From: Ceratodon purpureus
Lineage: Eukaryota > Streptophyta > Bryopsida > Pseudoditrichales > Ditrichaceae
Length of the DNA: 64,000 nt
Reading direction: 5' to 3'
Assembly (NCBI GenBank): GCA_014871385.1
Contig: CM026426.1
Span: 27,735,037-27,799,036 of the forward strand
A model generated the notes under the pieces. That model was not told the DNA's origin, did not search any database, and saw nothing but the letters and a program-made list of their open reading frames with translations. Shown piece after piece: positions 5,829 through 51,436 of this stretch (position 1 is the stretch's first letter; each line of letters begins with the position of its first letter). A program made the position numbers and the translations under genes.

Positions 5829-5834
5829 AGTTCC

Positions 5835-23351: not shown

Positions 23352-23408
23352 CTGAACTAACAGCAGCTATAAGGATCTACTACTTGATATCTGTATATTA
23401 CAGATAGC

Positions 23409-30934: not shown

Positions 30935-31100
30935 AAACATCATTGACACGAGGAAGGATGATATTATACGGGGATGAGAAACGGTCAAGCAGTGATGACT
31001 CTTATTCCTTTAATAGAGAATGAGGAAGACACGTGACTCAGATGTAATCATCGAGGGATGACCCTCTGTCGTTCCTAAGTGGCATAGAGGATCATGGATC
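30935..31100 (+). repeat. Dispersed repeat, copy 2
   Basis: Diverged copy of 28741-28920. It ends at the 3' end of the DUF7869-like gene and includes a damaged GATC palindrome at about 31049-31072. Confidence 0.65.
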
Positions 31101-33014: not shown

Positions 33015-33022
33015 CTGGTGAG
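33015..33022 (+). repeat. hAT target-site duplication, left
   Basis: CTGGTGAG, identical to 49922-49929. Read on the minus strand it is CTCACCAG, the 3' splice site of the host intron. Confidence 0.92.
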
Positions 33023-33180
33023 CAGGGTTGTTCAAATAGACGTCCGACCCGGCTCCGGATGTCAAGACGTCCGACCCAGACGTCCCCCGTCCCGAACGTG
33101 GCGTCCCCGACGCTCGAGAATTACGTCGCAGTAATAATTTTGCCACCCCGGAGGGGTAAAAACATATCCCAGCCGTCCGA
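33023..33180 (+). repeat. hAT left terminal inverted repeat and subterminal motifs
   Basis: CAGGGTTGT is followed by several AGACGTCC or GACGTCC copies (33037, 33068, 33079). The right end (49840-49921) has matching GGACGTCC motifs in palindromic form. Such subterminal repeats usually bind the hAT transposase. Confidence 0.75.
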
Positions 33181-33903
33181 TCGGCCGATCCCGCCATCAC
33201 GCCCCATCTCGGCCGTCCGCGGGGACGGCCGCGGGGTCGTTGGGGACGGCCGCACGTTGATCCGACGGCCAAGATGCGGCCGTGCTGGCACATCCCGGGC
33301 CGTTGGATGTGGGCGGCCCTCCTGGGCCGTCGAATCCCACGGCCGTCGCCGTGGCCGACCGCGGGGACGGCCTCAGGGACGGCGCGGGATCCGACGGCCC
33401 GGATCGACCCCGGCGCAGGCCATCGGGGACCGCTCCATCGGCGCGGCCGACCGCGGGCCGTCCGATCCCGCAGCCATCCCCGTGGCCGTCCCCGCGGTCG
33501 GCAACGGCGACGGCCGCGGGATCGGACGGCCCGCGGCAGCCATGGTCGGCCTGGGTGGGCCGTCCGATCGGGCGGCCGTCTCCGCGGTCGGCCGCGGGGA
33601 CGGCCATCGGATCGGACGGCCCTCCTAGGCCGACCATGGCGGCCGCGGAGGGCCGTCCGATCCCGCGGCCGTCCGCGTGGGCGACCGCGGGGAGACACGG
33701 CCGTCCGCGTGGCCGACCGCGTGGAGACGCGGCCGACCGCGGAGACGGCCGCGTCGGTCGTACGGCCACGCGGCGCCATCGCCCGACGCGGCCGTCTGAT
33801 CGGACGGCCGGCGCCTTCGGGCGGAGTCGCGCCCGATCGGACCGCCGCGGGGGCGTAGATCGGACGGCCGTGGGGACGGCGGTGGGGACGGCCGCGAGGT
33901 CGG
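33181..33903 (+). repeat. GC-rich GGCCGTC block 1
   Basis: Several hundred bases of almost pure G and C built from CGGACGGCC, GGCCGTC and CCGCGG words in both orientations. All six frames stay open for long stretches and give Arg/Pro/Gly-rich nonsense, so these are not genes. It ends exactly at the TATA palindrome of the kinase-like gene. Confidence 0.75.
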
Positions 33904-33924
33904 CTTCCCCTATATAAGGGGAAG
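33904..33924 (+). promoter_or_regulatory. TATA box inside a palindrome (kinase-like gene)
   Basis: TATATAA at 33911-33917 is framed by the perfect 7-base arms CTTCCCC and GGGGAAG. It is the first AT-rich DNA after GC block 1 and lies 266 bases before the ATG at 34190. Confidence 0.65.
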
Positions 33925-34189
33925 CTGCCTCTTCATTTTTTACCTTTTTTCTCCCTTTTCGAGTGAGGCTGATTGCTACTGGTGGGGGATTCGATCCTTC
34001 TCCGTTGGTCGTTCTCACCGGGAGGAAAGGGGTCCTTCATTTGGGGGGGGGGGGGGGGACTTTTCGAATTTTTAAACGGTTTTTTTCAAAACCCTTTGGA
34101 TTTGTATTGCTCTTATTAATCATAGTGGGAAGTGAGGGTTTTCTTGGACTAGCGGTTACGATTTCTTGAAGCCTTGAAGGCTTTCCACG

Positions 34190-35665
34190 ATGCCGAAGAA
34201 CAAGAAGCAGAAGAATGTGGGGGAATGGGCGAACCAATCTGATGACATGCCGAGCTTACGTTGCAGGGATTATATGGTGGCATTCATCGTGGAATTTTAC
34301 CAGGAGAATATCCTTGTTTCATTGAATAGTCGTTACGTTCGGTATGGGGAAGATGGGCCCAGGAAATTCAAGTCAGAGATGGAGACAAAGATCAGGGATC
34401 GTTTGATGGATCCGTGCTGGCATTCGGATACACAGAAGCCCGGTTACGATCATTTCGTGTCACAACGTGCACACGATGCGTTATGGAATGCTAAAGAGGT
34501 TATTACTAAGTATGCAAAGGCGCAAAGGGGGGGAGTCCAGGCCTTCAAGGATACTATTGCAAAGGCAGATTTTTTCACGAGACTAATGGCGCCCCTAAAC
34601 TCAAGAAAGCATCGACGGGCGTCTATTACTTGGTGGAATTCTCCGATTGGGATGGAGACGGCGGCTGACTTACGTAAACGGCATTTGACTATCTTGGCAG
34701 ACTTTGCAATTTTCTATTACTTGGACAAGGAAGTCCAGAGAGGTGGTTATGCTACCATACGTAGGGTTCGTATCGAAGGAAACCCGGAAATCCCACCGTA
34801 CTGGGAGTTTGCTGAGAAACGGCCGCTCAATTGGTCTATGAGGCCGGATTTGGCACGTGTGGACCACTACAATGAATCTCTTGCGATAAGGATTCCCCAT
34901 CCTGGTGTCATCCGCTTCATGGCCATTCATCAGTTGGAACATGTGGGATTCATGTTCTGGTGGAACGGTGGGACCCTTCGAGCCATGCTACAGAGAGACA
35001 ACGAGGCCCCGGGTGACCTCCCCATCGACTACATCTTCAGTGAGAATGCAGAGGACAGTCCGATTCTAGGGAAGCGTCTCCAACTTTTCCGAAGTAAGCG
35101 TACAGAACTTGCTTGGGCATTGTGTAACATCATAGATGCTGTGCACAAATACGGTTACCTCCACAATGACTTGTCACCGGACAACATCCTACTTCACTTT
35201 CCGGAAGATGAGTCCAAGATCTACATTGGGGTTTGTGATTGGGGCTTGATGACAAAGACACTAGAGAACAGAAGGTCGCCTTGGGTTTTTGAGAGTGTCC
35301 ATCAGAAGGAGGAGACTATGAGGAGGCGATATTGGGTGGATCCTCGCGTGGTATACGTACACAAGGAAAACCAAGATATTCAAATCATTCCAGATTTGAC
35401 GGTTGCATCAGAGGATTTCGCAGCTGCGAAGATTGCAGCAAAGATCAACAGGGGCAACATGTGCACGGCATACCACGAAGCGGAGCCAGTAGAAACACGC
35501 CATTTCCAAAATATCGGAGAACTCGCAATGGTTTTCGAAGGTTACCTTGAGAGAGTTTGCCAAAACAACAGTGGAACGATTGGTGGACTCGGACATCTTA
35601 TTAACCGTTCCAGAGATACACACAACTGGCCCACTCCCATCGAGCACTACCGCGTGGGTTACTGA
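34190..35665 (+). CDS. Divergent protein-kinase-like cargo protein
   Basis: A complete 491-codon frame from ATG 34190 to TGA. From about residue 190 it resembles a kinase domain. GGYATIRRVRIEG could hold strands 2 and 3. HPGVIRFMA and FMFWWNGGTLRAML fit strands 4 and 5 and the hinge. YLHNDLSPDNILL at about residue 325 is an HRD-type catalytic loop with its Asp and Asn, and CDWG at about residue 349 stands where DFG is expected. The glycine-rich loop and the strand-3 lysine are not obvious, so activity is uncertain. The N-terminal 180 residues are unrecognised. No stop interrupts the frame, unlike most genes here. It is one of the cargo genes of the hAT element and has its own GC block and TATA box. 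Confidence 0.75.
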   Translation: MPKNKKQKNVGEWANQSDDMPSLRCRDYMVAFIVEFYQENILVSLNSRYVRYGEDGPRKFKSEMETKIRDRLMDPCWHSDTQKPGYDHFVSQRAHDALWNAKEVITKYAKAQRGGVQAFKDTIAKADFFTRLMAPLNSRKHRRASITWWNSPIGMETAADLRKRHLTILADFAIFYYLDKEVQRGGYATIRRVRIEGNPEIPPYWEFAEKRPLNWSMRPDLARVDHYNESLAIRIPHPGVIRFMAIHQLEHVGFMFWWNGGTLRAMLQRDNEAPGDLPIDYIFSENAEDSPILGKRLQLFRSKRTELAWALCNIIDAVHKYGYLHNDLSPDNILLHFPEDESKIYIGVCDWGLMTKTLENRRSPWVFESVHQKEETMRRRYWVDPRVVYVHKENQDIQIIPDLTVASEDFAAAKIAAKINRGNMCTAYHEAEPVETRHFQNIGELAMVFEGYLERVCQNNSGTIGGLGHLINRSRDTHNWPTPIEHYRVGY

Positions 35666-36607
35666 TATGGAGATACATATCTACCTTTCCGTATTCCTAT
35701 AAAAGCATAATATTTTTTTTGTTACCGAACGGCGGGCATAGCTCTCAGTAGTGAATAGTCATATTTAGAGTCTATATTATTATGAGATGTTGGAATCTCA
35801 ATTTTTGTACATGGGTCAATATTTTGTTTCTAAAGTTTATTTGCATTTGGTTCAAATATGGTCTCTGTACTAAGATTGGTCTATTTCTACCCCTTGTATT
35901 ATGAGGAAAACGGATTGGCTCCACACATCCAGCTAAAAGTCGATACTCTCAATTCTAATTATGAAAATGATGCGATATGTGAATTGTAACCGTTATGCTT
36001 TGTACGTTTTACTCTTAGAAATATTGGCAAACGTATACTGAAGTTCTTTTCGTGAAGACGAAAGCGTAAGGGCCGCAAAACATGATTGCTCATAATCCCC
36101 GGTACAAACAAATACCTTAGATATAAATATGCATCCCTCAAAAAATATCATTCACGATATTCTTATTAATTTAGCAAAAAAAATAATTGAAAATTATTTT
36201 GCATACTTGTCTTGAGATTCATAATATTCTAGTGCTCGTAAGTCGTAACCCATGTCAATAGGAAGTTGTCATTTTAAAAATAGTGATATTGATAGTAATG
36301 TGCACTTAGAATAATGCTAGAAGAATATTAAAAAGGTAAATTCCTTTCAAATGTGAAGACAACTACAATATAAAAGACAACACAACTACACTCTAAAACA
36401 CTAATTATATCTATTCTACTTGCAAAATGTGGCACGTGCCAATATTCTTGAGTCCGTACATTTTAAACCTCCATCTACAAAACTGCAAACTACGTACATA
36501 CTATGCTTGCATCTTTTACTTTCCGTTGTAAATTTGTAATATGCAAGGTCCACGTTAAAGACTCGGTACGCTCCGATGCTGTAGAAAGTACTACCATGCA
36601 CCCCATT
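35666..36607. other. AT-rich spacer inside the hAT element
   Basis: No supported gene. It separates the tail-to-tail kinase-like gene and cargo gene A and probably holds both 3' ends. Confidence 0.5.
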
Positions 36608-38110
36608 CTAATAGTCTCCCCTCCACCCTAATCCATTGTAGTCATATGGATGATAATAGTTCCCATCATTGTGGAGTTCGCTTGGACCTCCCCGATCGTA
36701 CGTTTCTTGTGGCCCGTGCCTTGCAGAATTTGTGGAGGCTCTCAGAAGTCTCTCTCTCTCCTCCATCAATCTTCGATTATCCCGTCTAAGGTGAAACGCA
36801 TGATTCTCCATTTGTAGTACGTAATTTTGCCTTGTTTGCTCCAACTCCAGTTCTTCCTCAAAATAGCTATCTCTTACAACTCGACCGGGAGGGTATCCAA
36901 AAGGAGGAGGTGGTACTCTGTCATCGGGACAAAGTACGTTGGGGTTGTCCCCGCTATTGTGATCAGTACCGTCGGTGTGATAACCTAGAGGTGGAGGAAA
37001 TATTCCAGGCCGAGTCCGCGAAGATGATCTGTAATCATCTTCTGCAAATAGGGCAGATGGGGTACCATGACCACCATATCCGCGGTATGGAGGGGGAGTT
37101 GCGTAATCATCACGTCCCAGTCTCTGCGTATCTTCTTCGCGATCTGGGGAATAAACGTGAGGTACCTCTCTCGGAGGTGTTCGATGGCGCGGACTAGCAC
37201 TCCTTGCAGGACTCGGTATTTCCAACCACCCGTCGTCATAGTTACTAAAGTATCTTGATCCCGTTGCATAATCTGGCCACGGTCGTCCCCCATAGGGTCC
37301 ATACGCACCATCCGCAAAGTCAAAGGGTAAATCAGCTCCTTTCGGTTCCCCGTGGCCATAGCCTTGTTCGTGGGGTCCCATGTCCTGACGATCTAGCGAA
37401 CGGTGTCCCCCGTGGGCAGAGCTTTGTCCATACTCCTCATGGTTGGTACGCGATGACTCTCTGCCACGATGCCCTCTGCGATTCTTGGGATTTTCGTTTG
37501 AGCGACGCCCTCGATAGTTGTCTTCATCATCATAGCTTAAATGACGTCTCTCCTGTTCCTCATCATTATATTCGATGGCTAGAGTTTGTATTCCTGCATC
37601 TTGTGCCGGTGGACTCCGACGGTTTGAAATATGTAATGGGGGACAATCGCTATGTCCACTCCAGTCTGTTACAAGATCCATGCTGTCTCTATTCATTCTA
37701 TCTGTCCTCAGGCCCGAGACTGTGGTCCAGTCAACCCTCTTGTGTAAGACTATCTCCGCCCACACCATTGCCATATTCGAATACAACATGATATGAGGTC
37801 GGGAGTTCTGGATTCGTGCTGCTCGAAAAACCTCGTTGTATCGAATTTAGAAATGATTACTTTCACAATTGTCGATCCTGATCTCTCCCCGTGTTGCCTG
37901 TTTCTCCGCAGCCTCGGTACGTAGATGTACTGGGATCAACTTCATGAGGTGCTTCATCTTGACATATTCCTTGCAAGTTACCATCCGCCATGGTGATGGT
38001 TCCCCCTCCCATCCAATCTCTGCTACACAATCAGGGTCATTCGTAGCGTATGGATCCAAGGGGTGTTTCCTTTTAGGAGTGGAGGGTCCTCCCCGGTCGT
38101 TACGAGGCAT
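36608..38110 (-). pseudogene. Cargo family gene A
   Basis: ATG at 38108-38110 starts MPRNDRGGPSTPKRKHP. An in-frame TAA at 37847-37849 splits the frame, which then continues to a stop at 36608. The N-terminal part (VAEIGWEG, CKEYVKMKHLMKLIP, then NMAMVWAEIVLHKRVDWTTV) aligns with cargo gene B at 42562 (VAEEGWES, CKKYVKMYHIDKLWP, CSMVYAELILKRKISW). The TAA replaces a leucine codon of gene B. The middle is Gly/Tyr/Arg/Pro-rich and disordered. Near the C-terminus is a coiled coil, YFEEELELEQTRQNYVLQME. The role is unknown; a nucleic-acid-binding or scaffold protein would fit the composition. A TATA palindrome (38446-38468) lies upstream. Confidence 0.6.
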
Positions 38111-38221
38111 GGCGAAAGTCCGGTAAGCGAGTAGCTGTGAATACCGTGTATCGAACCAACCTTGTAACAATGCGGGTAACTTCTCACCACCGTATAAAAG
38201 TTGATTTAATCTCGTATATAT

Positions 38222-38410
38222 CTAGTGCATAAGGACTAAAACAAAACCCAGAACTCCTGCCAAAAAACCGTACGTATGAAGCACTATATTGTTGGTTTCA
38301 TAATAACCAACATACGGTGCTGACAACCCTAAACACAATCCCACGATAACCCGTGGGGAAGTAGAAAAAGCTTGGAGGAACGCAACTGAGCTGAAGTAAA
38401 TCCAGCACAT
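38222..38410 (-). CDS. Small hydrophobic leader ORF
   Basis: A 62-codon frame, ATG at 38408-38410, lies in the leader of cargo gene A. It has two hydrophobic segments (VIVGLCLGLSAPYVGYY and FLAGVLGFVLVLM) and could be a small membrane protein, a regulatory upstream ORF or chance. Confidence 0.25.
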   Translation of the reverse strand: MCWIYFSSVAFLQAFSTSPRVIVGLCLGLSAPYVGYYETNNIVLHTYGFLAGVLGFVLVLMH

Positions 38411-38445
38411 GTAGCACGAGCACCCAAGTGAAGAAAAAGGAAGCA

Positions 38446-38468
38446 GGGCCAGCCTTTTATGCTGGCCC
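38446..38468 (-). promoter_or_regulatory. TATA box inside a palindrome (cargo gene A)
   Basis: Minus-strand ATAAAAG is framed by the perfect 8-base arms GGGCCAGC and GCTGGCCC. GC block 2 begins immediately beyond it. Confidence 0.65.
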
Positions 38469-38469
38469 G

Positions 38470-39060
38470 AACCCCTAGACAGCCAGTTAGGTCAGACGAC
38501 GGCCCCCCTACGGCCGTTGGATCTCGGGGAATGGAGAATCCAACCGCCGTAACTGGTCCGTCGCGCGACCGGTCGCGGCCGTCCAGGATCGCGGCCGCGA
38601 CCAATCGTGCGGCCGCGACCGCTCCCCAAAGGGTGCGTCGGTGGACCGCCGTCCCGCGGTCGGGACGGCCGACCACGTGGACGGCCGTCCCCGGGGTCGA
38701 CCGCGGCCAACCGCGGGGACGGCCGTGCTCCACCCGGCGGTCGGAGGCTGCAGCGGCGTGGTCGGCCACAGCCGTCCACGCGGACGGCCCTTCCGACCGC
38801 GGGGTCGGCCGTGGCCGTCCCCGGGTCGGGGGGCTGCGACCGCGGTGTCGGCCGCGGCCGTCCACGCGGGGTCGGCCACGGCCGTTCCCGGGGACGGCCA
38901 CGGCCGACCCCGCGTGGACGGATGTCGTCCGCAGCCGTAGGATCTTCTCGGCGGAGAAGATCCGACGGCCGTGGGCTACGGCCGTCGACGCAGGGTCGGC
39001 CGTGGCCGTCGCCGGGGACGGCCGGGGGGGGGGGAGGGTCGAAGGAACTCCCCTCCCCTT
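38470..39060 (-). repeat. GC-rich GGCCGTC block 2
   Basis: Same word composition as block 1 (GGCCGTC, GGACGGCC, CGCGG). On its far side lies a C/T-rich tract and a perfect 12-base inverted repeat, CCAAACAATCCC and GGGATTGTTTGG (39119-39146). A shorter inverted repeat in a similar position occurs after block 3 (TCCCAA and TTGGGA near 42390). The far side may be the leader of a lost plus-strand gene. Confidence 0.7.
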
Positions 39061-39118
39061 GTGTTTTCTCTCCTCTCCTCTCCCCTCTCCTCCCCTATTC
39101 TCCCCCCTCCTTCTTGTC

Positions 39119-39146
39119 CCAAACAATCCCACTTGGGATTGTTTGG
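39119..39146. repeat. Perfect 12-base inverted repeat
   Basis: CCAAACAATCCC, spacer ACTT, GGGATTGTTTGG. It would form a stable hairpin in either strand. Confidence 0.7.
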
Positions 39147-39260
39147 ACAGCATATTTCCTACAAATGGAAAATTCATACATATCCCGGATATTGTGGGGA
39201 ATGTCCTGAAGATCCTGTGATCGGGGAGGTGGGGTCGACGTTTGAAATTGGGATCCAATG

Positions 39261-41700
39261 AACTATGTGATATTTTGGTTCTTTGGGGGTGGATAACCCC
39301 CTAGGATCTACAAATAATGTGAACACGTTTATGAAGAAGAATATATATCCTATTGAATGGAAAGAACCGTAAACATTGTGGGTATACTAAAACAGTTTTT
39401 ATCAATTGTCATTTAAATAAACGAAGTTACTCATGTTTTAGCATACGGTAATGAATTAACATTTTATACTAACGAATCAAAAGAGTAAATGTCAACAAGG
39501 AGATGATAAGATGAACATCGCGGAGAGAATGCACTAGAAGTAATTCAACGCATAAATTGATGTACACACTTGGTTTTTCATGCGGTGCAACTTACGTTTA
39601 AATGGTTAAGAGATTTGCATTTATATTTCACCGGTTTACGGTTTCATAAATCTCTTAGAAATATAGATCCAATTTCTTCTCGAATAGTGGTATACAATGA
39701 AAATATTTATATAGATTCTTTGACTCTAATTTTTAATGGAATGATTTATCCCAGTTTTATTTCTATAATTTTACATACTCTCGTTCTTTAGTATTATGAT
39801 AGAATCAAAAATAAAAACATAAATAGTAGTTTAGATTATGAGAGAAACTGAAGATAATAATAAATTAAAAAAAACCAAAACAAACATTCAATTCTCTTGG
39901 GATTATGCAATTCATGGGAGGAATAAAACTCAAATCATTGTTTTCATAACAGATGGTCCAATTCTAATTTCTCATGCCTGGTTTAGAGTTATATGAAATA
40001 TAAAAACTCTCCTTGCACTTTAATGTCTTTTATTTTACACACTTCCATACCGTAGTACTGTGTTAACATTAAAAAAAAAAAAAATCACTAGCTCACATTA
40101 TGAGATGAGGAAGGGATAATAGTAAAAAACAAAACAAAAACAGAAAACATTCAATCGTCACTGAATAATGCCAATTTGTGAACGACTAAAATTGAAATCA
40201 TTGTTTTTATAAACAATTCTAGTTTCCCACGCCCAGAATTGAGTTTTAACTTATATGAAATAAAATAAATAAATTAGGTAACTCATTTACATTATATTCT
40301 ATAGGAATATATGTTTATTCATATACACTTTAACGTAAATATAAATATGGAATTGGATTCTAACTTGTACAATGTATAGTATATACGTACAAAAGTAATC
40401 ACTTACTAATGACACAATGAGAGAATTTAACAAGCACGATAATTCATAGAGACACATAGACTATACTGTACCAAGGAAAAATTAAAAAGTCACGACGTGA
40501 AATACTTGGAGCTACAAGTACGGAAATAAAATTATTACACGAAAACATATATTGACGGGACATAATTTTAGAAATATATATATATATATATTATTGGAAT
40601 ACTAAAAATACTGATGAACGATGTTTGGTAGGGTGGTATTGTTTCGGAATAGTAATTAATTAAATTAATGAACAACACAAAGAACAAGAGGTTTGAGGAC
40701 GGATATGAATATTAGAACTATAACAACGACGGGTGTAATATTAAGAAATAACGTATCGATACACTTGGGGAAAGCTGTGAAGTAGAAGTATATTCATAAG
40801 TAAACAAATGAGTGAACCATCAAAATAATAGACGAAAAAAAAATAGTTTGAGAGGGAAAGTATCGAAATTATAATTATTAGAAGAAATAGAAGTTGGCCA
40901 TGATGTAGTGATACATGGAGAGTTCAAAACGTATATATGAAAGAGGGGTACAGTACTCAATAAAAACTAAAGCAGTAGGGTACATCTAGTAGAATATAAT
41001 TCAAAACTAAAGCAGTAGGGTAGAATTAGTAAAATGGTGGAATAGTGGTCGAATTAGTAAAATATACTTTAACATGGGTCATGGAGGAAATAAATCGAAA
41101 TACGAACGTTCGAAACGATATGAAAGGAAGAAATTCACGAAATGACATTTATGGAGCTTCGAGGGTTGGAGTTGTAGATTAGACAAATTAGACGTTAAAA
41201 AAAGGGCATAAACTAGGGGGGAATAAACATAGAGGAAAATAAAGAAGAAGTAAATGAAAACCATATTCGAAAGTGGAAATTGTATAGAGGGAGGAACGTT
41301 AAAAGTACATAAAGAGATGGTAACTCGAATTAAATTGAGAATATGAAGCCGTTTAATGAAAGTATAATAGAAGTACTTATGTATTTAAAAAAACAAAAAT
41401 TCAAAGCGGAGAATAAGAAGACGGAGAACTATTAAGATTACAATTTCTGAAACAAGTTTAGATGAGTTCGATTTCTGCAAGGAACTTCTGGAGTGCGATG
41501 GTAGACAGCATGAAATGCGTACGATAGAAACAACAGAAATAATGATTCAAATAAATGACACATACATTAACTTCGGTGGAGCGTACGGAATAATGACTCG
41601 TTGAAGAATTTAGATGCTTTGCATACCATGAAGTATTTTAATTCATGTTTACATTAACTGCTGTTCTCATTTTAATTAGTGAAAGAAATTAACAGGTTTA
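39261..41700. other. AT-rich desert inside the hAT element
   Basis: About 2.4 kb of AT-rich DNA with short A runs and a TA microsatellite near 40580. No frame is convincing. It follows a leader-like stretch (39060-39260) and may be the erased remains of a fifth transcription unit. Confidence 0.5.
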
Positions 41701-41769
41701 GTTTAATATGTGGTCGGAAGATGTAGCATTATATATTTTTATCATTTGTATTTAAAAAAAGGGGGGGAG

Positions 41770-42301
41770 GGAAATTTCCCGCGGCCGCGACAGCCTCGTC
41801 CCCACGGTCAGGGGCCGTCTCCGCGAGGGGCCGTCCGCGGGGACGGCCCTTCGACCGCGGCCGTGATCGAACGGCCGTCACCTTGGAGACGGCCCCGATC
41901 CGACGGCCGCGGGCTCTTGCCGACGGGGCCGTCTCCAAGGCCGTCTCCAAGGCCGTCTCCAAGGCCGTCTCCAAGGCCGTCTCCAAGGCCGTCCCCGCGC
42001 GGTCCGCCGCCATGGACGGCGACGGCCGCGGAGACGGCAGCGATCGGAGGGCCGCAAGCCGCCCCCTCGGGGGCCGTCTCCAAGGCCGTCCCCTCGGCGA
42101 CGGCTTTCATCGGACGGCCGTCGCCGAGGAGACGGCCCGATCAGACGCCCGCGGAGGCACGGGCCTCCGCGGCCGTCACCGTGGCCCCCGACCGGACGGC
42201 CCCTAACGGCCGTCGTCAGGTTCGGGACGACGGCCATTGGCCGCGGCCGTAGGATCGGGGGGCGACGGCCCTAGGCTCGGGGGGACGGCCGTAGGGTTGG
42301 G
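41770..42301 (+). repeat. GC-rich GGCCGTC block 3 with 12-base minisatellite
   Basis: Same words as the other blocks. At 41928-41993 the unit GGCCGTCTCCAA is repeated in tandem about five times, showing how the block can expand. The block leads into the TATA palindrome of cargo gene B. Confidence 0.75.
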
Positions 42302-42327
42302 GGCCGTCGCCATATATGGCAACGGCC
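42302..42327 (+). promoter_or_regulatory. TATA-like element inside a palindrome (cargo gene B)
   Basis: GCCATATATGGC (42309-42320) is a perfect palindrome; with one mismatch pair it extends to GGCCGT and ACGGCC on either side. It is the first AT-rich DNA after block 3 and lies about 240 bases before the ATG at 42562. Confidence 0.55.
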
Positions 42328-42561
42328 GTCCTCCACTTCCTCACTTCACTCTCCTCAATAGTCCCTCTCCTATTGCTACAGTTTCCCAATTCACTTGGGA
42401 GCTTGTTGGTACGTGGGGGTGAGGAGATGGGGGTCCCTTTTTATTGTGGGGGGGGGGAGTTTTTGAATTTTCTGTATTCGTTATTTTGTAAACCGTCATT
42501 TATCAACTCCTTGTTTTCTTTAAAACAAAACCATTACGTTTTTGTTAAAAACGAGGTTACT

Positions 42562-44615
42562 ATGGCGGATCCGGAACATGATGAGATTGGAGGAACCGGG
42601 AAGAGGAACAGGCCGAAGGGAACGTGCCACAACTTTTCTTGGGAGATCCTAGACAACAAAAACATTGTAGCAGAAGAAGGCTGGGAATCTGTAGGGGAGA
42701 TTTTCTGGACTTTCAAGGAGTGCAAGAAGTATGTGAAGATGTATCACATTGACAAGTTGTGGCCCCGAGAAGAACACGAGATGAACACACGGACTTTTAC
42801 TTGCAAGCCCTGGTCATGCATGGATGACCATTTCTTGCATCGGGCATATGAAGTCTGGACTACTATGTTTGGGCAACGGAAGCCCAGCAAAGGCCATTTC
42901 AATTATACCATTTGCAGTATGGTATATGCGGAGCTAATATTGAAGCGGAAGATTAGTTGGTGTACGTACCCCACTACGAAAGACAGGCCGTTGCAAATTG
43001 GATGGATGGTAAGAGACATTCCGGATTTATATCTGATCGATCCTTTGCAAGCAAAGTAGGTTGTAGCAGAGTTCCGAAAGCGGCAGTGGCCACATCTAAA
43101 GAGCTTTCCGAAGAATGAAGTAAAAAAATTACAGAATGAAACTCCGCATCGTTCAGAGGAAAAAAGCCTGTTGCCACTGCCAATGTGATCGCTATGATGT
43201 TCCCCGTTGCCACAGAAACTAATGTCCCTACTATTCCTAGAGCAGACCTGGGAATCACGGTGAAATCTTCCAACGATACAAAGGGCAAGGCAGCCGTAGA
43301 TGAGGTGGAAGTGGAGGTGGACAATGACTGTTCAACACATCTTACGGCTGCGGCAGCCGGATGCTCCAAGCCTTGTTCAGTGGATGATGGTCCAAGTTCC
43401 TTGGCAATAGTACAAGTGCGTACCGAAGAGGATAGCACAAAGGATGCAGTTCATTCCATTTCGGAGATTATGGAGCTGGTGAAGTCGATGCCAAACAACA
43501 AATCATTGAAGGAGTTACTAGATTTTAGCATCAAACTGACGGAGGTGTCCTCTGATGAACAGCGTGGGGGCTTAGAGAATACCACGGAGGAAGACGCTGC
43601 AGGAAAAACCACGGAGGAAGTGCAACAAATTCATAATGTGTTGAAGATTGCACACACCCTGAAGGAAGGGACTTCCGTATTAGGCGCTATGGCACCAGAT
43701 CTCATAAATATGGCTCATGCATTTGGAAGTATCACTCCGGGCATGGTACAGGGTGCCCTTGGCTTTGACACTTTGGCATCTTCCATTAAGCCTCTTCTGG
43801 AAGACCGTGTGAAATTAGGCGAAGAGAACGTGGCCCTGAGTAAGGATTTAATGGAGGCAACGCAACTAATCAAGAGTTTGAAAAAAAGCTTGGACATAGT
43901 GAAGATGAATTGGAGTGCACAATTGGAAGAGTGCGAAAAATTCCACCCGATAGTTAAGGAGAAAATAAAAATAAAAGAAATGAAGCCTGCGGTGAAGAAG
44001 GAAGTGGTGAAGGTGGAAGGAAAGGATCGTATCATTGAAGTACTGAGCGATGGTGAGGATTCCGATGACCTTGGCCTTTCTAAATTTTCAAATAAAAGTG
44101 GAGATGGGGCCACACAAGGGATGGCGTCTCAGAAGTCTAAAATGACATCTGGTCCAGTTCCATTGGACATTGGCTCTAGCCAAGCATCACCAAGACATGA
44201 GGATAGAGGAAAAGGGCTAATGGATGATTCAAAGGAATTAGACATTCTTTTACGGGATTTGGAGGTGGCTAGAAGGGAAAGAGACGAGGCCCGTACGGAA
44301 CTGGAAAGGCTGAAGACCACCATACAGATGGTAGATGATACACCATCTTCCATAAGGGCATTATCATGGCTTGGTTGGGTCCACAAACTACGAGATAAGG
44401 AGACAATAGTCTCTAGAGCACAACAGGATATGAAGAAATGTGCAATTACTTCCATGGATGTCGAAGAAGCTATCCAATCATCTTTACAGAAGTATAACGA
44501 GGCAGCAGCCAAGGGCGGCGAGGATGCTACAAAAATCACGATATGGCGCGATGTAGGAGAAATGATGGAGCGCACATTACATAGTTCCAAAAATAAAGAA
44601 GGGGTCATTGACTGA
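42562..44615 (+). pseudogene. Cargo family gene B
   Basis: ATG at 42562 starts a 165-codon frame to a TAG at 43057-43059. The same frame continues past the stop to about 43187, and the remainder is open in another frame from about 43160 to 44615. The first 165 residues match cargo gene A, including EEGWES, CKKYVKMYHIDKLWP, HRAYEVW and SMVYAELILKRKISW. The C-terminal part is Glu/Lys/Ser-rich with coiled-coil segments (RRERDEARTELERLKTTIQ), as in gene A. Either two small lesions or an unrecognised intron separates the parts. The leader holds a G run and TTTTTGAATTTT also seen in the leader of the kinase-like gene. Confidence 0.55.
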
Positions 44616-44639
44616 GCGCTAGAGGTCGAGGAGGGGTGG

Positions 44640-45731
44640 ATGCCGCACGATGTACTATCATCTCATTTGGATGAATCAAAACGTGTGGTTATCCATACCC
44701 ACAAACCGTCGGAGGAATATTCAAAGGAGACGTGTCCCATCTGTCAACAATATTTTGGGCCGGAAGGGGCCTTTGAGATGGGACATTGTAATCACAAGTT
44801 CCACATAACCTGCATCGCGAAGGCTGCTTTAATCAACAAACAGTGTGTTATGTGTCGCTCCCCAATTGGTTCACGTTTTTACGAGATGCTGGGACTACAA
44901 CACGTGATGCCGCCTGGGCATGAGTTTGATCGGTGGAATTTACCACTAGACCAACTACCTAAGAAAGAGCTGAATTATTATGATTGGGGCAAATCACTTG
45001 CTTGGAACCCGGAGACAATGACTCACCAACTATCTACGGCTAACGATGCCGGAATGGACGATCTTTCATGGATGACACACGACTATGAGGTGGAGATGAG
45101 GGCACGTGAAATTCCGGATGCCAAGGACCGAGAATTTTTTTGTAGGAACTTCGGTGGACATTGGAGTATACATGGCAATCGCTTCTTCCGGTTTCCAAAA
45201 CCAGAAGTTGTGGTAGATGCCAACGGTAAGAGAAGAGAAGTAGAACGGGACTATGGCCAACTTGATGAGTACAAGATGTATGACAGAACCCCGGTTGGGA
45301 GGGCACTTGTATTGGCCAAACTAGAAGAAGCCATTCAGCATCGTCGCACTTTTACAGAGGAATCCTTCAAATATTCGGACCTAGACTACTGGGTGATCAT
45401 TAAGAAGTCTGACGATGCTCTTCAGAAAATAGTTTGCGACTGGAGAAGGGCACTTCGTGCGGAGGATAATTCCTCTCGTTGGTCACGGAATAGGATTGAG
45501 AAGATTGTGCAAGAAACAGTAGCCAAGATTGAGAAGGCAAAGGAGTTGTGGAACGGGAAGAATTCCAAGAAGCGCAATCGAGACAACCCTTATGAAGATG
45601 ACCCCGAATGGGTAGAAGATAATCGTCGTTCTTTGGATCGCGCGGAAGAAGAATATCGATCGGGGGGTACGATTACACATCCAAGCCAGCGACGCCAAAC
45701 TCGGAGGTCAAATGCAAACAATGGACGTTGA
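44640..45731 (+). CDS. RING-H2 finger cargo protein
   Basis: A complete 363-codon frame from ATG 44640 to TGA 45731. Residues about 31-77 hold CPIC, then GHCNHKFHITC and CVMC, giving the C-C-C-H-H-C-C-C spacing of a RING-H2 finger, the signature of ubiquitin E3 ligases. Downstream are MPPGHEFDRWNLPLDQLP, FFCRNFGGHWSIHGNRFFRF and a basic coiled C-terminal region (KIEKAKELWNGKNSKKRNRD). The ATG lies only 24 bases after the stop of cargo gene B, with no room for a separate promoter. It may thus be the last exon of the same transcript or translated from a shared RNA. Its intact frame suggests it is or was recently functional. Confidence 0.75.
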   Translation: MPHDVLSSHLDESKRVVIHTHKPSEEYSKETCPICQQYFGPEGAFEMGHCNHKFHITCIAKAALINKQCVMCRSPIGSRFYEMLGLQHVMPPGHEFDRWNLPLDQLPKKELNYYDWGKSLAWNPETMTHQLSTANDAGMDDLSWMTHDYEVEMRAREIPDAKDREFFCRNFGGHWSIHGNRFFRFPKPEVVVDANGKRREVERDYGQLDEYKMYDRTPVGRALVLAKLEEAIQHRRTFTEESFKYSDLDYWVIIKKSDDALQKIVCDWRRALRAEDNSSRWSRNRIEKIVQETVAKIEKAKELWNGKNSKKRNRDNPYEDDPEWVEDNRRSLDRAEEEYRSGGTITHPSQRRQTRRSNANNGR

Positions 45732-46230
45732 GTACAGTATTTTCGTTGGACATGGTACCCGCATTACTACGGTTAATGTGACAATACACTAGGTGATAGT
45801 CGTATTTAGAGCAGTATATATATATATATATATTGGTTGCGGAGCCGGGTGTATGGACTTTAGACTACTTCTATATGTACTTGCAAAAATTACCTCTGGT
45901 TTTAATACAATTTCATTTATGTTTTCTCGGAGTTGCATTTGTGTTGAAAGAATTGTTAGTACTTAGATGCATCAAACTTCATATGTAGATTTTGTACATT
46001 CATTACGAGAAAGAAATTGCGAGAAGTACAATCAAAGTAAACATAAGTACACAACGCGGAGGACGATATTGAGGATGCAAGCACCAGCGCTTAAAAGTTA
46101 AATGTATATGATATGATAATGGTTTTCTAGAAATGGACATTCATAAAAGAGTGGCATTCTAGGGTGCTGCACCGGAAATGCTGCCTTCTAACTATCGTGC
46201 ACAATCACGCCACCTAATCGCTGTCGTCCT
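45732..46230. other. Convergent 3' spacer with TA microsatellite
   Basis: Lies between the tail-to-tail RING gene and the transposase. A TA run sits near 45816. No gene. Confidence 0.5.
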
Positions 46231-49188
46231 TCACTTCGGCCCCACTAGGACCGGAAGAATCGTATTCGTCACGCCATCGCTCTCGCGTACCTTCTTCACC
46301 CTCGCCTTAGTCTTCTTCTTTGACTCGAATGGGTTCAGGAATTTCTTTGGGCCATTCGGGTCATCCAAAGGAGTTTTTGGCCTCCCAGAATTGAAAGCCA
46401 ACACCTTCTGAGTCTTGTCTACAGCCTTTCGCTTGGACGTGGCTCTAGCAGGAAGTTTCTCAGGAAATATGTCCGGTTTTCCCAAAGCCAACTTCGGCCC
46501 AAAGAGATGCCCAATTGGAAGTCCGTCATCAGTAGAAAGGAGGCCCGGGTCCGCTTCTCGGGTTCGGACCAATCTCTTCCTACATTTCTCCGCTACTTCA
46601 GCAGCCTTAGCATCTGCCTTCATTTTTTTAGACAACTCAACCAACCTCGTGGACGATTCGAACTCACCAACTTGGACCCTAGTCTTTGCGGTTCCAAACA
46701 ATGTCCGAGATGCACCCAATACGGGTACGGGCACATCCTCCTTTGTAGTGGGTGGAACCATATCGTCCTTCAGGCGGTTGAAGTTTGGAGAAAAAACCTT
46801 AGAAGTATCAATGGTGGGGTCTCCCTCTTTCTTTGGTACGACCAAATCCACGGTAGTATGAGAGGATCCTTCCCGGAGAATCTTATCACTGTTTAATAAA
46901 CCGTCTCCATTCAGAAAAGAGGCAAGAGGAATCGTATCCTCCTCGTTGGTACCTTCTTGTTCGACATCATCATACTCGAAAGCACGCTCCATCGGCGCAG
47001 GAGAATAACGGGATTTTCCTTTCGGAGACACCTCGAGGTCGTCGACTAGGGCCTCAATAGGGGGGTCAATTGATAGATCGTCAAAGGGTAGATCAACATC
47101 AGACTCACTAGAGTAGTCAACGTCCTCGGTTTCCACGGCCTTCGGATCCTCCTTCCCCTCCAACTCCCCGTAGAACCTGCCTAAGGCACTCAACTTGGAC
47201 TAGGAAATTATCTTGGAATTTGTATACACAAACACAAGGTCATTAGCCCTCTCCGGAAGTAAACGGTTTCGCTTCCTGTCGTGGACAAAGGAGTAGCTAC
47301 TCCAATTCCGCTCGCATGAAGAAGAAGACACGGGCTGAGCTAAAATCCTTTTTGCAATTGGGGAAATGAATTTACCAGCGGATCCGTATATATCCCACCA
47401 ACCAGAAGGCGGCAGTTGTGACTTAGAGGAGTCACGTACGTCACAAAACGGAGGATAAGCTTCACAAAATGCAAAGAACTCTTCTATGACCACTTCCTTC
47501 AGTGTCGGAGAAGCCATCGACAACAAGACCTCCTTCGCCGATGCCATCGCATCAATATCATTGTGAAGGTCCTCATCGTCAATAAGATAAGGGTTTAGAA
47601 GCGCAGCAGCACACTGTAAGGGTGATTTAATCATGGCTTTACGCTCATAAAATGAGTCCTCGCAGAAATCAGCATTGTCAGAGTCTAGTTTGAAGGGCTT
47701 ATGGCGTAAAGAGAGGACATGCTTCTCAAGGTTGCGGAGAACGACGTAGGCTTTACCCAATGCCGATTCCTTCGCATCAAACTCTCGTAGGGCAAGTACA
47801 ATGGGACTCGTCATCCACTTGAAGTTTGCACATTGCTCCCAGAAAACGTCATCCAAGACAACCCTCTTAACATCGCGTGAGATCTTTGCTTTGTCACGGG
47901 CAGATAACGTCTTCTTCGTTTCGTAGTTTCTCCAGTCAGGATCCACAATGCTCTGCTCCAATGCTCCTCGAACCTTCAATAGACGCGAAATCATAATGTA
48001 GTGCGATGCAAACCTAGTCTGACCAGGCATCAGCAAGCTAAGTTTTGCCTCGTGCTTTTGAAATACGGAGAGTGGCATTTGCCTTATCTTTATGAACTTA
48101 ACCAAGTTCTTAGCCCGATCTAGGAGCTCCTTCACCCACTTCATCTTACTCCGATCCTCCAACAAAAGATCCATCGCATGGGCAGCACATCCTTGGACAA
48201 ATATGGATGGATAGAGTGCTTGGACCAACTTTCCGGCATTAAGCATCACCGGAGCATTATCGTAGCATACTTGAATGATGTTCTGTTCTCCAACTTGTTG
48301 GATAAACTTCTCAATGACGGTCGCTACGAAAACGGCATCCTTCTCTTTCCCACTCGTGTCAACGGCTCCCAAGAATAACTCACGAGCGGGAGATACCAGC
48401 ATTGCGTTTATTAGAGGGCGACTGCTTACAGAAGTCCACCCATCCAGGGCCAACATTCCCCCGTACTTCCTAACACTTGAAAAAATCCTATCATTCAAGG
48501 AAGTCTCCAAATCAGTCCTTGCTTGGGCTAGTAAATTTGTTCGGAGATGGTGGAAAGATGGAGGTGTGTATGATCTCTTCATGTTGGACGTCTTCAACAC
48601 CGCGTCCTTGAAAGAGGCACTCCGAGCCACGTTAAACGAGATACTGTTCTCGTAAAAACATGTGGCCCATGCTTTGTCGCATTCCCGCCTCTGAGTCTCT
48701 TCGAAGCCCTCTTGAAGGGTAGATTGCCTCTTTGCCTTCAAAGGAGGAAACGGTCCACTACCTTCCCCTGGAAGAGTGGAAATGAAAGGTACACCCTCAC
48801 CAAATAAAACGGGTTCATTCTTCGGAGTTGAAACCCGGGATCCAGAACATGAGTCCACATCCATGGGAGTGTTCACTCTCGGGGATATATTGCCACGAGT
48901 CACGGGGGAAGTACTCTGCTCCGACATGAATATTCTGGAGTCGTTGGGGAATTTGCCACCGCAATTCTTGAACAAGGACAGTATAGCGGGTGACAAATTA
49001 GTGCAACGACCTACTCCACTAGTCCGTACCCCTAGAACTTTGTCATAGCCCAAATGACTGAGCATCCGCTCAATCCTCTTTGCGAAAGTGTTCTTGCATA
49101 GCATACATTGAACCATCTCAGTCTTCTTCTTCTCCGCATTGATCATATGGACTTCGGTATACCATGGGGAGTAACTTTTAGACGCCAT
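46231..49188 (-). CDS. hAT transposase with C-terminal extension
   Basis: ATG at 49186-49188 opens 662 codons to a TAG at 47200-47202; the same frame then stays open to 46231. Residues about 8-50 form a BED-type finger (CMLCKNTF, MLSHLGYD). The catalytic core has LALDGWTS (about 250), VCYDNAPVM (about 312) and CAAHAMDLLL. The C-terminus is the hAT dimerisation region (SGWWDIYGS, SSSSCERNWSSYSFVHDRKR), with the last acidic residue in CERNW. The D-D-E triad and C..H motif are present, so the enzyme may be active even if translation stops at 47200. The extension is acidic and then basic, with no known domain. TATAAAAG lies upstream at 49393-49400. Confidence 0.85.
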
Positions 49189-49392
49189 TAGTGCACTTGA
49201 TAGATCGCCCGGAAAAACTTCACAAAATCAAAGTACCACGTCCTCAAGAGAACTAGAGCCTCCGAAGAAGCTCCAATTCAACACACTTCTGAACGCCGCC
49301 GTTCACCATGCAACAGATACACACGTATATTAGTGCAACTAGTAGCACATGGAGTACAATTCAGAAGTGTAATGCCAACTTTCACGAGGGGT

Positions 49393-49400
49393 CTTTTATA
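49393..49400 (-). promoter_or_regulatory. TATA box of the hAT transposase
   Basis: TATAAAAG on the minus strand, about 205 bases before the ATG at 49188 and just outside GC block 4. The flanking arms are only weakly palindromic. Confidence 0.55.
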
Positions 49401-49439
49401 CTCATCCCATGAAATGCCAAGGCGTAAGCCCTAAAAATC

Positions 49440-49790
49440 AAGGGAGGACGGCCGTCGAGGCCGTAAGTCAAGCGAGGGGCCGTCCGATCATGGATTGTCA
49501 CGGCTGTCGAAGGGGCCGTCGCCGGGGACGGCCCCTCCACAGCGGCGACGGCAAGGGGCCGTCGCCGGGGATGGCCCCCCCCACCGCGGCGACGGCAAGG
49601 GGCCGTTGCCGGGGACGGCCCCCCCTCCGCGGCGACGGCAAGGGGCCGTCGCCGGGGACGGCCACCCCCTCCGCGGCGACGGCAAGGGGCCGTCGCCAGG
49701 GACGGCCCCTTCCCGACGCGCCCGACGGCCCCCCCCGCTCCGCGGCGACGGCCGCACCCTCCCCCGCAACCCCTCCCCCGCGTAGAAGGT
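49440..49790 (-). repeat. GC-rich block 4 with 44-base tandem repeat
   Basis: Five units of about 43-44 bases, each starting near GGGGCCGTCGCCGGGGACGG, occupy about 49512-49730. The same GGCCGTC vocabulary as blocks 1-3 is used. It is adjacent to the right subterminal region of the element and upstream of the transposase TATA box. Confidence 0.75.
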
Positions 49791-49839
49791 GTGGTTTCAC
49801 CCCGGGGTGAAACCTATGCGGGTGATTTTTTTTTTCTAA

Positions 49840-49921
49840 GTCACAGGACGTCCTCTGGCGCTGGCGGACGTCCGCGGACGTCCCCACGTCCCGAGCGTCC
49901 CGAACGACCGTGACAACCCTG
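49840..49921 (-). repeat. hAT right terminal inverted repeat and subterminal motifs
   Basis: Read inward on the minus strand it starts CAGGGTTGTCACGG and holds GGACGTCC palindromes (near 49847, 49866 and 49876), the mirror of the left end. Confidence 0.75.
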
Positions 49922-49929
49922 CTGGTGAG
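49922..49929 (+). repeat. hAT target-site duplication, right
   Basis: CTGGTGAG, second copy. It follows the terminal ACAACCCTG and precedes host intron sequence with a pyrimidine tract on the minus strand. Confidence 0.92.
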
Positions 49930-50110: not shown

Positions 50111-50148
50111 CAATGACACTAGAAGAAACGCGAAGCAAAGACTCGTAC

Positions 50149-51390
50149 GTCATTGGCGTCAGCCATCACTCGCTTCCAGTTGTTGCCTGCTGGAAGATAT
50201 TTCAGAGTGTCCACTCGTCCATTTCCGATTCCTCGCATTTGATCGGGCATCTGATCTGCATTCTCGTCTACAATAGCAGCAATAGTACCCATGACTTGAA
50301 CTGTTCCGATCCTCGGTCGCTTGTAGCCCTTGTTTCCATGCGCTGTTGATAGAACCCCTTCGTTGTATCTTTGGACATAGCTATGAAAAGTTGACTTGGG
50401 AACTCTGTGAATAAGATACCACGCAGTTGCGCAAACTTCCAAACCATGCAGCGTCAAGTACTTCCTCCTACGGTCACCGTCGATTGAATGCATCTGTCCA
50501 CCCGCCGCAATCATGTATTCCCGTCTTCCCTGAAAGGATTTCGAATAGAATTTCTTACTCACTATTAGTGTGAGCTCCTGGGGAAATGTCTGACAGCAAT
50601 GCTTCGAGCAGCATCGTTCGGAGCTAACCTTCCTCACTTCAGCATCCGCTGTCTTCGTATTGTACAGCAGACGTTTTTCATGCGTTTTAGGTTTCCGCAC
50701 TATAAACCGGTAAGGTGCCTTCCGTCTGCCTCCAAGGTGCTCTTGTGGATCTACCTCCATTGGGATTCGGGAGAAATGCCCGACTATCGACCGAAGAGAA
50801 GGGCCGTTTGGATATTTGCATTCAAATATCAACCAACGCTCATTACTCATTATGGCTTCAGTGTCCCCGACAAAGACGTCGAGGATTGTCACTCCAATGT
50901 ATCCCTCGCCCAATCTTCCGTCTCGGAAATACTCCTCCGGTTCTGAGCAGAACACTCTACCGGAGGCTATAACCGCACCCGCAAGGTCCAGTTTCTGAAC
51001 TTCCAGACCAATCCAGGATTGTTGACGAACGTACTCAACATCGTTCATGGGAGGATCCTGCAACAATGCAATCGCATCACCAGCTCTCCAGAGGACTGTT
51101 CGATTCATAGCATCCCTCAAAACGATGCAGCCTCTCTGGCATGGTTCGAGGAAGAGGTCCTCTGCGTCTGACACGATGCTTGATGGTCGCACAAGAATAA
51201 ATTCTGAAGAGCCAGGTGGAATGCAAACCCCAAGCCACTGCCCAGAAGGATTAACGTCGACAACAGATCCGATTCCAACATCTCCGAAACGAGGGACGAC
51301 AAGCTTCACAGACTGACCGGGTCGAAGCTCATCTGAGCGAGCAGTTGATTCCTGAGAGAAGTCGTAACGGGAAGGTCCCACAGACGGCAT
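50149..51390 (-). CDS. DUF7869-like gene, 5' exon (continues at 33014)
   Basis: ATG at 51388-51390 (the frame is open further upstream through an acidic DSDSDSDG run). The frame continues to NWKRVMADAND and then a GTACGAGT donor at 50141-50148. It contains a beta-rich N-terminal module (LRPGQSVKLVVPRFGDVGIG), a Cys-rich RCCSKHCCQTFPQ motif and a helix-turn-helix-like stretch, WYLIHRVPKSTFHSYVQRYN. Spliced to 33014 it continues in phase 0 with PFERTGALETNVS. The full gene would be about 1050 codons. The 16.9-kb hAT element lies in the intron between the two halves. Confidence 0.7.
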
Positions 51391-51436
51391 CTGGGGACCG
51401 TCACTGTCACTATCAGAGTCCTTCTCACGAGAGCCA

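What the first reader, a model, noticed from the sequence alone, without database searches (positions are those of the whole stretch)
33023..49921. Giant cargo-carrying hAT transposon of 16.9 kb
Seen: 9-base inverted termini CAGGGTTGT/ACAACCCTG, an identical 8-base flank CTGGTGAG on both sides, a hAT transposase with D-D-E residues inside, and a host gene that becomes continuous once the segment is removed. Known: hAT elements make 8-base duplications and are usually only a few kb. Inference: this is a composite element that moves a kinase-like gene, a RING gene and two copies of an unknown cargo family together with its transposase. Intact frames of the kinase-like and RING genes suggest the cargo is kept for a reason, comparable in spirit to fungal Starships but with a hAT engine.
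Basis: partly seen in the sequence, partly recalled or inferred. Interest (0 to 1): 0.92.

Follow-up and report, generated by a model that had tools for sequence, protein, structure and literature searches.

The report
Four-gene giant hAT transposon in moss
In the genome of the moss Ceratodon purpureus, a cut-and-paste jumping gene of about 17,000 bases carries a protein kinase, a RING-finger protein and a third protein alongside its own transposase, and since a distant relative carries much the same set, these look like working parts of the element rather than picked-up cargo.

Summary
Window 33023-49921 is a 16,899-bp hAT element in the moss Ceratodon purpureus, on a 110.5-Mb contig that is probably the V chromosome. 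It has CAGGGTTGT ends, an 8-bp duplication (CTGGTGAG) and a hAT transposase. The flank is a multicopy repeat: 40 of 40 scored copies match the joined flanks across the junction, and 8 of 8 read have one CTGGTGAG. The "composite cargo" reading is only partly right. The element belongs to a family with four genes in fixed order: kinase (491 aa), gene B (~500 aa), RING protein (1,060 aa) and transposase (994 aa). Among scored matches 31 four-gene clusters were found, 11 with all four frames open. The window copy is decayed: only its kinase is intact. The "two cargo copies" are an N-terminal domain shared by gene B and the RING protein. A second, 12-kb family encodes the same transposase + kinase + RING trio at 27-35% identity. 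Gene upstream regions hold GC-rich arrays whose motif is family-specific. I read this as an autonomous multi-gene hAT clan with element-serving accessory genes, perhaps counter-silencing; that function is inferred and untested. New variant of a known kind.

The parts
33015..33022 (.). left target-site duplication CTGGTGAG
   Evidence: single copy in 8 of 8 empty paralogous sites read
33023..33031 (+). left terminal inverted repeat CAGGGTTGT
   Evidence: same end upstream of the kinase in 28 of 30 loci, this one included
33060..33930 (.). GC-rich repeat island 1 (GGCCGT/CGGCCG arrays): left subterminal region and kinase upstream region (limits by eye)
   Evidence: in the C4 copy GGCCGT occurs 36 times in this island against 1.8 expected
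34190..35665 (+). protein kinase gene, 491 aa, intact; Lys210, Glu229, Asp327, Asn332, Asp350 invariant in the 38 aligned sequences
   Evidence: 87 scored copies in the genome
36608..38110 (-). gene B, 500 codons with one in-frame stop at codon 88 in this copy; N-terminal domain shared with the RING protein
38460..39050 (.). GC-rich repeat island 2, upstream of gene B (limits by eye)
   Evidence: counted in the C4 copy
39300..41700 (.). AT-rich spacer between the two divergent upstream regions, no gene recognised
41760..42330 (.). GC-rich repeat island 3, upstream of the RING gene (limits by eye)
   Evidence: counted in the C4 copy
42562..45731 (+). RING-finger protein gene (1,060 aa in open copies); broken here by stops at 43057-43059 and 44613-44615 and a frame change
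46231..49188 (-). hAT transposase gene (994 aa in the C4 copy); broken here by a stop at 47200-47202; DUF659 and hAT dimerisation domains and D/D/E motifs lie before the stop
49430..49790 (.). GC-rich repeat island 4: right subterminal region and transposase upstream region (limits by eye)
   Evidence: counted in the C4 copy
49913..49921 (-). right terminal inverted repeat ACAACCCTG
   Evidence: same in 12 of 12 right ends fetched
49922..49929 (.). right target-site duplication CTGGTGAG

Best explanation
This is a decayed copy of an autonomous, multi-gene hAT DNA transposon family. Shown here: a defined unit with short inverted ends and 8-bp duplications; many copies with the same four genes in the same order and orientation (kinase >, < gene B, RING >, < transposase); a distant second family with the same transposase, kinase and RING protein; small elements without these genes but with the same or related ends; an exact empty site. 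Inferred from what is known of hAT enzymes: the transposase cuts at the CAGGGTTGT ends and pastes the whole unit with an 8-bp duplication. Inferred and untested: the kinase and RING protein are not cargo for the plant but serve the element, most likely by acting on host silencing or repair factors (phosphorylation, ubiquitylation). The domain shared by gene B and the RING protein may bring them to the family-specific GC arrays upstream of the genes and at the ends, keeping the genes expressed, much as VANC proteins do for VANDAL elements. The confidence given is for an autonomous multi-gene hAT whose extra genes serve the element; for the counter-silencing role alone I would say about one in three.
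For: Mobility: duplications, ends and empty sites. Fixed gene set: from 87 kinase and 67 transposase matches, 47 pairs in opposite orientation within 60 kb, 41 of them 11.2-16.2 kb apart; 31 clusters in order K-B-R-T, 11 with all four frames open; a full-length copy of 16,721 bp on contig C4, in which gene B ends early. Second family: 12,068 bp, exact GCTGCATG flanks, transposase 35%, kinase 28.5%, RING protein 27% identical; hAT, Pkinase and RING domains above Pfam's cut-offs; a 793-aa RING frame in its sister copy; 82 scored kinase copies, 80 without stops. Relatives in unnamed sources track each other: kinase 79/61%, RING 80/65%, transposase 86/76%. Kinase active-site residues invariant in 38 sequences, kinase fold predicted at pLDDT 85. 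Shared kinase substitutions have N/S 1.13 against 2.41 expected (p 0.002; 1.06, p 0.010, with five loci left out as likely duplicates). Arrays: 124 of 127 GGCCGT sites of the C4 copy lie in the four islands upstream of genes; family 2 has five islands with a different motif.
Against: 111 of the 142 clusters hold fewer than four genes and 21 of 67 transposase matches have no scored kinase partner; capped scoring and broken copies can explain this, but I did not test it. The 30 kinase copies used for the selection test are those most like the window's protein, which can lower N/S by itself; single-copy changes in them are not significantly below neutral (N/S 2.07, p 0.30; 1.79, p 0.09 after leaving out five loci). 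RING frames of 13 chosen open copies show no significant selection (N/S 2.3 and 2.2 against 2.7). CpG transition rates in the first island and the kinase frame do not differ (p 0.43); relative to other C-to-T changes the island ratio is lower (1.24 against 2.35) but this was not tested. The shared N-terminal domain has no Pfam match and its model is poor (pLDDT 47), so DNA binding is unsupported. No expression or transposition data. One of 12 other copies has mismatched flanks, and the second copy of family 2 has unlike flanks.
Confidence: 0.82

Rival explanations
1. Captured cargo: host kinase and RING genes were picked up by a hAT element (Pack-type or Starship-like) and are carried passively or for the plant's benefit.
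For: The genes have no known role in hAT transposition (recalled); the window copy keeps the kinase open while the transposase is broken; 111 of 142 clusters lack at least one of the four genes among scored matches.
Against: Same gene order in 31 clusters; trio shared with a family only 27-35% identical; parallel divergence in other sources. Only two copies of each family were read in full (window and C4; two on C1), and these agree within each family.
Confidence: 0.08
2. A variant of the best explanation as to function: the accessory genes act on the transposition reaction itself (transposase dose, nuclear entry or repair of the large gap) and have nothing to do with silencing.
For: Equally compatible with the anatomy; a kinase and a RING ligase could modify the transposase or repair factors (inference).
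Against: Family-specific arrays upstream of every gene fit control of transcription better; no direct evidence either way.
Confidence: 0.3
3. Nested or composite unit: two neighbouring hAT elements (left and right halves, each with GC-rich ends) now move as one.
For: GC-rich blocks inside the element resemble the subterminal blocks; gene B and the RING protein share a domain.
Against: No internal CAGGGTTGT in the window; internal blocks sit upstream of genes and recur in the C4 copy; the 12-kb family has a block upstream of each gene too.
Confidence: 0.03
4. Assembly artefact.
For: Some flanks in the assembly are masked (N) and one pair of flanks does not match.
Against: Copies at different sites with matching duplications, and exact empty sites.
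Confidence: 0.01

Closest known systems
hAT superfamily (Ac/Tam3, Hermes)
   Same: 8-bp duplication, short inverted ends starting CAGGG (start recalled as common in hATs), DUF659 and hAT dimerisation domains, D/D/E motifs; weak PDB match to Hermes transposase (E about 0.01)
   Different: 16.7-16.9 kb with four genes; typical autonomous hATs have one gene and a few kb (recalled; maize Ac is given as 4.6 kb in the abstract of PMC3260210, seen in the listing)
hAT7 elements of Puccinia carrying TET/JBP dioxygenase (PMC12730594, passages read)
   Same: hAT elements with an extra enzyme gene; in the same paper IS3EU elements carry an alpha-kinase gene
   Different: 7-bp duplications, fungi, a dioxygenase; no kinase + RING pair reported for the hAT ones in the passages read
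VANDAL elements and VANC anti-silencing proteins (PMC5735166, passages read; PMC10398659, abstract and section list)
   Same: multi-gene plant DNA transposons; tandem arrays of a family-specific motif in non-coding regions that diverge between families
   Different: Mutator-like transposase and no kinase or RING protein (recalled); anti-silencing shown there, not here; no direct comparison with VANC sequences was made here
Giant KDZ, EnSpm and Sola elements of algae (PMC12477816, passages read)
   Same: over 10 kb, accessory genes, in a host with a long haploid stage; KDZ and EnSpm enriched on sex chromosomes
   Different: other superfamilies; accessory genes mostly unknown; hAT not among the giants named in the passages read
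Starships of fungi, including Sanctuary with ToxTA, formerly ToxhAT (PMC12506042, passages read)
   Same: large unit with several genes besides the enzyme that moves it
   Different: tyrosine recombinase captain; ToxhAT, the supposed 14-kb hAT, was reclassified there for its 2-bp duplication

Membership tests
hAT superfamily | 8-bp target-site duplication | tested here: met
   window and 7 of 12 other copies exact, 1 at 7 of 8, 1 mismatch, 3 not testable; exact empty sites, 8 of 8 read
hAT superfamily | short terminal inverted repeats | tested here: met
   CAGGGTTGT/ACAACCCTG
hAT superfamily | transposase with hAT dimerisation domain and D/D/E catalytic motifs | tested here: met
   Dimer_Tnp_hAT 5e-11 and DUF659 3e-34; motifs starting at 248, 308 and 623 of the window protein (motif meaning recalled)
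hAT superfamily | catalytic activity | not testable with these tools
   needs an excision assay
Starship | tyrosine-recombinase (DUF3435) captain | tested here: not met
   no such domain in the Pfam scans of the element's proteins; hAT transposase instead
VANDAL with VANC | family-specific motif arrays in non-coding regions | tested here: met
   GGCCGT arrays in family 1, GCGCGAGC arrays in family 2
VANDAL with VANC | Mutator-like transposase | tested here: not met
   hAT domains instead
VANDAL with VANC | VANC-family protein | not tested
   gene B has no Pfam match, but it was not compared with VANC sequences
VANDAL with VANC | element protein removes silencing marks | not testable with these tools
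   needs methylation data; CpG decay test inconclusive
Pack-type gene capture | carried genes derive from identifiable host genes and differ between copies | tested here: inconclusive
   gene order is the same in 31 clusters; all 87 scored kinase hits are 88-100% identical, but only the best candidates were scored, so a distant host parent could be missed
Eukaryotic protein kinase | catalytic Lys, HxD, Asn and DxG residues | tested here: met
   K210, D327, N332, D350 invariant in 38 sequences (motif meaning recalled); kinase fold

The most novel reading that the evidence does not exclude
A clan of giant hAT transposons carries its own signalling module: a kinase and a RING-type ubiquitin ligase, with a targeting domain that reads family-specific promoter arrays. 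It uses this module to override host silencing and drive all its genes together. This would be a counter-silencing system unrelated to VANC or TET/JBP, in a haploid-dominant plant.
Probability: 0.33. Interest if true: 0.85.

Novelty: new variant of a known kind. Interest (0 to 1): 0.63.

Why it matters
In the papers I saw, giant DNA transposons with accessory genes belong to KDZ, EnSpm and Sola, and to Starships. This puts the hAT superfamily among them, with an accessory set kept across two very divergent families. A kinase and a RING protein that travel with a transposase give a concrete, testable route to how a plant element may act on its host. The kinase is deposited as an ordinary hypothetical gene (KC19_VG055000, cluster of 126 members), so gene counts for the Ceratodon sex chromosome may include element genes. 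Many copies look recent: 18 of 30 sampled kinase genes differ from their consensus at no more than 8 of 1,473 bases (counted), and second-family kinases are 97-100% identical (82 scored), so activity can be looked for in living moss.

Tried and rejected
Composite of two nested elements: set aside, no internal ends in the window and the same internal islands in the C4 copy. Cargo of host genes: weakened by the second family. Selection on the RING gene within the family: no significant signal (the 13 copies were chosen from those with open frames, which weakens the test). CpG decay as a sign of unmethylated islands: inconclusive (22 of 30 loci used, 5 left out as likely duplicates and 3 without the left end; one search failed in the script). 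Structure of the shared N-terminal domain: model too poor to search. Relatives of the kinase in viral contigs and in prokaryote genomes: none confirmed (39 and 15 pattern matches, none a relative). In one search a strict RING pattern in my script matched no family-2 frame (it does not fit family 1 either; a looser one was run on family 1 only); Pfam then found the RING domain in family 2. The 9.6-kb CAGGGTTGT pair (L056) has unlike flanks, longer inverted ends and no match to the element's proteins: set aside. Protein searches of the genome score only the best candidates, so copy numbers are lower bounds and chromosome shares are suggestive. The 18 of 82 family-2 kinases on C6 were counted by hand and put into. 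Right ends were fetched for 12 copies, chosen from the close kinase-transposase pairs (41 pairs, the window's own included). The Ceratodon genome paper is not in the library. Literature: searches listed no report of a multi-gene hAT with kinase and RING genes; only listings and the passages named were read, and subscription papers and Repbase were not searchable.


Full report
Where it is. The window lies at G000:C6:27735037-27799036 in a 362-Mb genome of 151 contigs. The best match of the kinase is a Ceratodon purpureus protein, KC19_VG055000, on a contig of 110,524,308 bases, exactly the length of C6. So this is the moss Ceratodon purpureus, and C6 is, judging from the gene name, its V sex chromosome (inference).

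The unit. CTGGTGAG flanks both sides of 33023-49921, which begins CAGGGTTGT and ends ACAACCCTG. Genome-wide CAGGGTTGT occurs 3,828 times, against 1,954 for the reversed control. The same left end lies upstream of the kinase in 28 of 30 fetched kinase loci, the window's own included. In 12 other copies whose right ends were fetched, 12 of 12 ends are the same; 7 of the 12 have exact duplications, 1 matches at 7 of 8, 1 mismatches and 3 cannot be judged. One further kinase copy (L010) shares the window's 8 bases and the roughly 110 flanking bases printed, which suggests a duplicated region rather than a second insertion; its right end was not found in the stretch fetched.

Empty site. The two flanks, joined at one CTGGTGAG, match 40 of 40 scored places (118 first-look candidates) at 96-98% over all 600 bases. 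In 8 of 8 read there is one CTGGTGAG and no insert. The flank is thus a multicopy repeat holding a DUF7869 gene, not a single host gene. A frame of about 68 codons runs across the joined site.

The genes. A full-length copy on C4 (16,721 bp, duplication GAAACAAA) has a kinase of 491 aa, gene B (445 aa there; 500 codons in the window, and open frames of 537 codons in many copies), a RING protein of 1,060 aa and a transposase of 994 aa, in two convergent pairs. In the window only the kinase is intact; gene B has one stop, the RING gene two stops and a frame change, the transposase a stop after residue 662. Scored copies: kinase 87 (57 without stops), transposase 67, RING 112, gene B 95. With 86 of the 112 RING rows entered, 31 of 142 clusters hold all four genes in order and 11 of those have all four frames open; the other 111 hold fewer genes, through capped scoring, broken copies or real differences, which I did not separate. 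The C4 copy is not among the 11.

The proteins. The kinase scores below Pfam's cut-off, but its active-site residues are invariant in the 38 aligned sequences, and its model (pLDDT 85) matches solved kinases by fold, with 9-15% identity in the 50 rows shown. The RING domain is above Pfam's cut-off, and the transposase has DUF659 and hAT dimerisation domains. Gene B and the N-terminus of the RING protein are 32% identical over 140 residues (E 7e-12), and both match the same stretch of family 2. That domain has no Pfam match, and its structure model is too poor to use.

A second family. A CAGGGTTGT pair on C1 bounds 12,068 bp with exact GCTGCATG flanks. It encodes a transposase (35% identical), a kinase (28.5%) and a RING protein (27%) in a different order, with hAT, kinase and RING domains above Pfam's cut-offs. 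Its sister copy, 99.7% identical over 11.4 kb, has a 793-aa RING frame; its two flanks differ. The family-2 kinase has 82 scored copies at 97-100% identity, 80 without stops. So transposase, kinase and RING protein seem to have stayed together through long divergence. Two shorter elements, L057 (5.1 kb, TTGACACA) and L053 (4.4 kb, ATCATTAA), have the same or related ends, exact duplications and no match to the four proteins: they look like non-autonomous derivatives.

Other sources. Relatives outside Ceratodon, from unnamed sources, diverge in parallel: kinase 79 and 61%, RING protein 80 and 65%, transposase 86 and 76%. The 65% RING protein and the 76% transposase both list a longest contig of 7,321 bases, and a 47% kinase and a 45% transposase both list 27,639, which suggests, without proving it, that they lie on the same contigs. 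No relatives were confirmed in viral contigs or prokaryote genomes.

Selection. In the 30 best-scoring of 87 kinase copies, substitutions shared by copies have N/S 1.13 against 2.41 expected (p 0.002); leaving out five loci as likely duplicates, 1.06 (p 0.010). Single-copy substitutions are not significantly below neutral (2.07, p 0.30; 1.79, p 0.09) (first run). This fits a gene needed by the copies that spread and free to decay afterwards, but choosing copies by protein score can itself lower N/S. For the RING gene, 13 chosen open copies show no significant signal; its case rests on conservation across families and sources.

Islands. The C4 copy has four GC-rich islands, each upstream of a gene, and 124 of its 127 GGCCGT sites lie in them (5.8 expected by shuffling, largest of 200 shuffles 12). 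Family 2 has five islands, near both ends and upstream of its genes, with another motif (GCGCGAGC, CTCGCGCC) and no GGCCGT in them. Family-specific arrays in non-coding parts recall the VANC targets of VANDAL elements (PMC5735166, passages; PMC10398659, abstract). Whether any element protein binds them is unknown, and CpG decay gave no clear answer.

Distribution. Family 1 kinases are over-represented on C6 (52 of 87 against 30% of the genome, p 3e-8), and there fewer are open (28 of 52 against 29 of 35 elsewhere, p 0.006). Family 2 is not enriched (18 of 82, p 0.12). Because only the best candidates are scored, this is suggestive only.

What is new. Multi-gene hATs are not without precedent: hAT7 of Puccinia carries TET/JBP genes (PMC12730594, passages). 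Giant elements with accessory genes are known in other superfamilies (PMC12477816, passages). The supposed 14-kb hAT of fungi, ToxhAT, has been reclassified (PMC12506042, passages), and a term search of the 2019 review of giant transposons found no 'hAT' in its main text (PMC6431247). In the searches listed under Tried and rejected I saw no report of a hAT with kinase and RING genes.

Noticed in passing
window 31092-32786 and 50119-51474 (minus): The flanking repeat holds a DUF7869 domain (31929-32786) and has at least 40 near-identical uninterrupted copies at the insertion site, probably itself a mobile element.
   Followed up: partly
window 51434-51917: An array of 12 repeat units around ATCGGGGGATCTCTCGAT sits at the 5' end of the open frame 50119-51474 (minus strand), resembling the upstream arrays of the hAT element but with another motif.
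   Followed up: no
window 19023-23366 (minus): A single open frame of 1,447 aa that looks like a Copia-type retrotransposon polyprotein (judged by eye).
   Followed up: no
window 5025-8711 (plus): Frames that look like a Mutator-type transposase with a SWIM-like zinc motif near the end (judged by eye).
   Followed up: no
L054+L055 and L067+L068 (contig C1): A second 12-kb hAT family with transposase, kinase and RING protein; at least 82 kinase copies at 97-100% identity.
   Followed up: yes
L057 and L053 (contig C1): Apparent non-autonomous elements with the same or related ends and exact 8-bp duplications; L057 seems to have long inner inverted repeats (same frames on both strands).
   Followed up: partly
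L010 (G000:C6:9413708): Another kinase copy with the same 8 bases and the same near left flank as the window, a probable duplicated region on the same chromosome.
   Followed up: partly
P0001: The element's kinase is deposited as an ordinary hypothetical Ceratodon gene (cluster of 126 members), so gene counts may include element genes.
   Followed up: no
P0024: A relative of the kinase is filed under a Bacilli metagenome bin, probably a misbinned plant contig.
   Followed up: no
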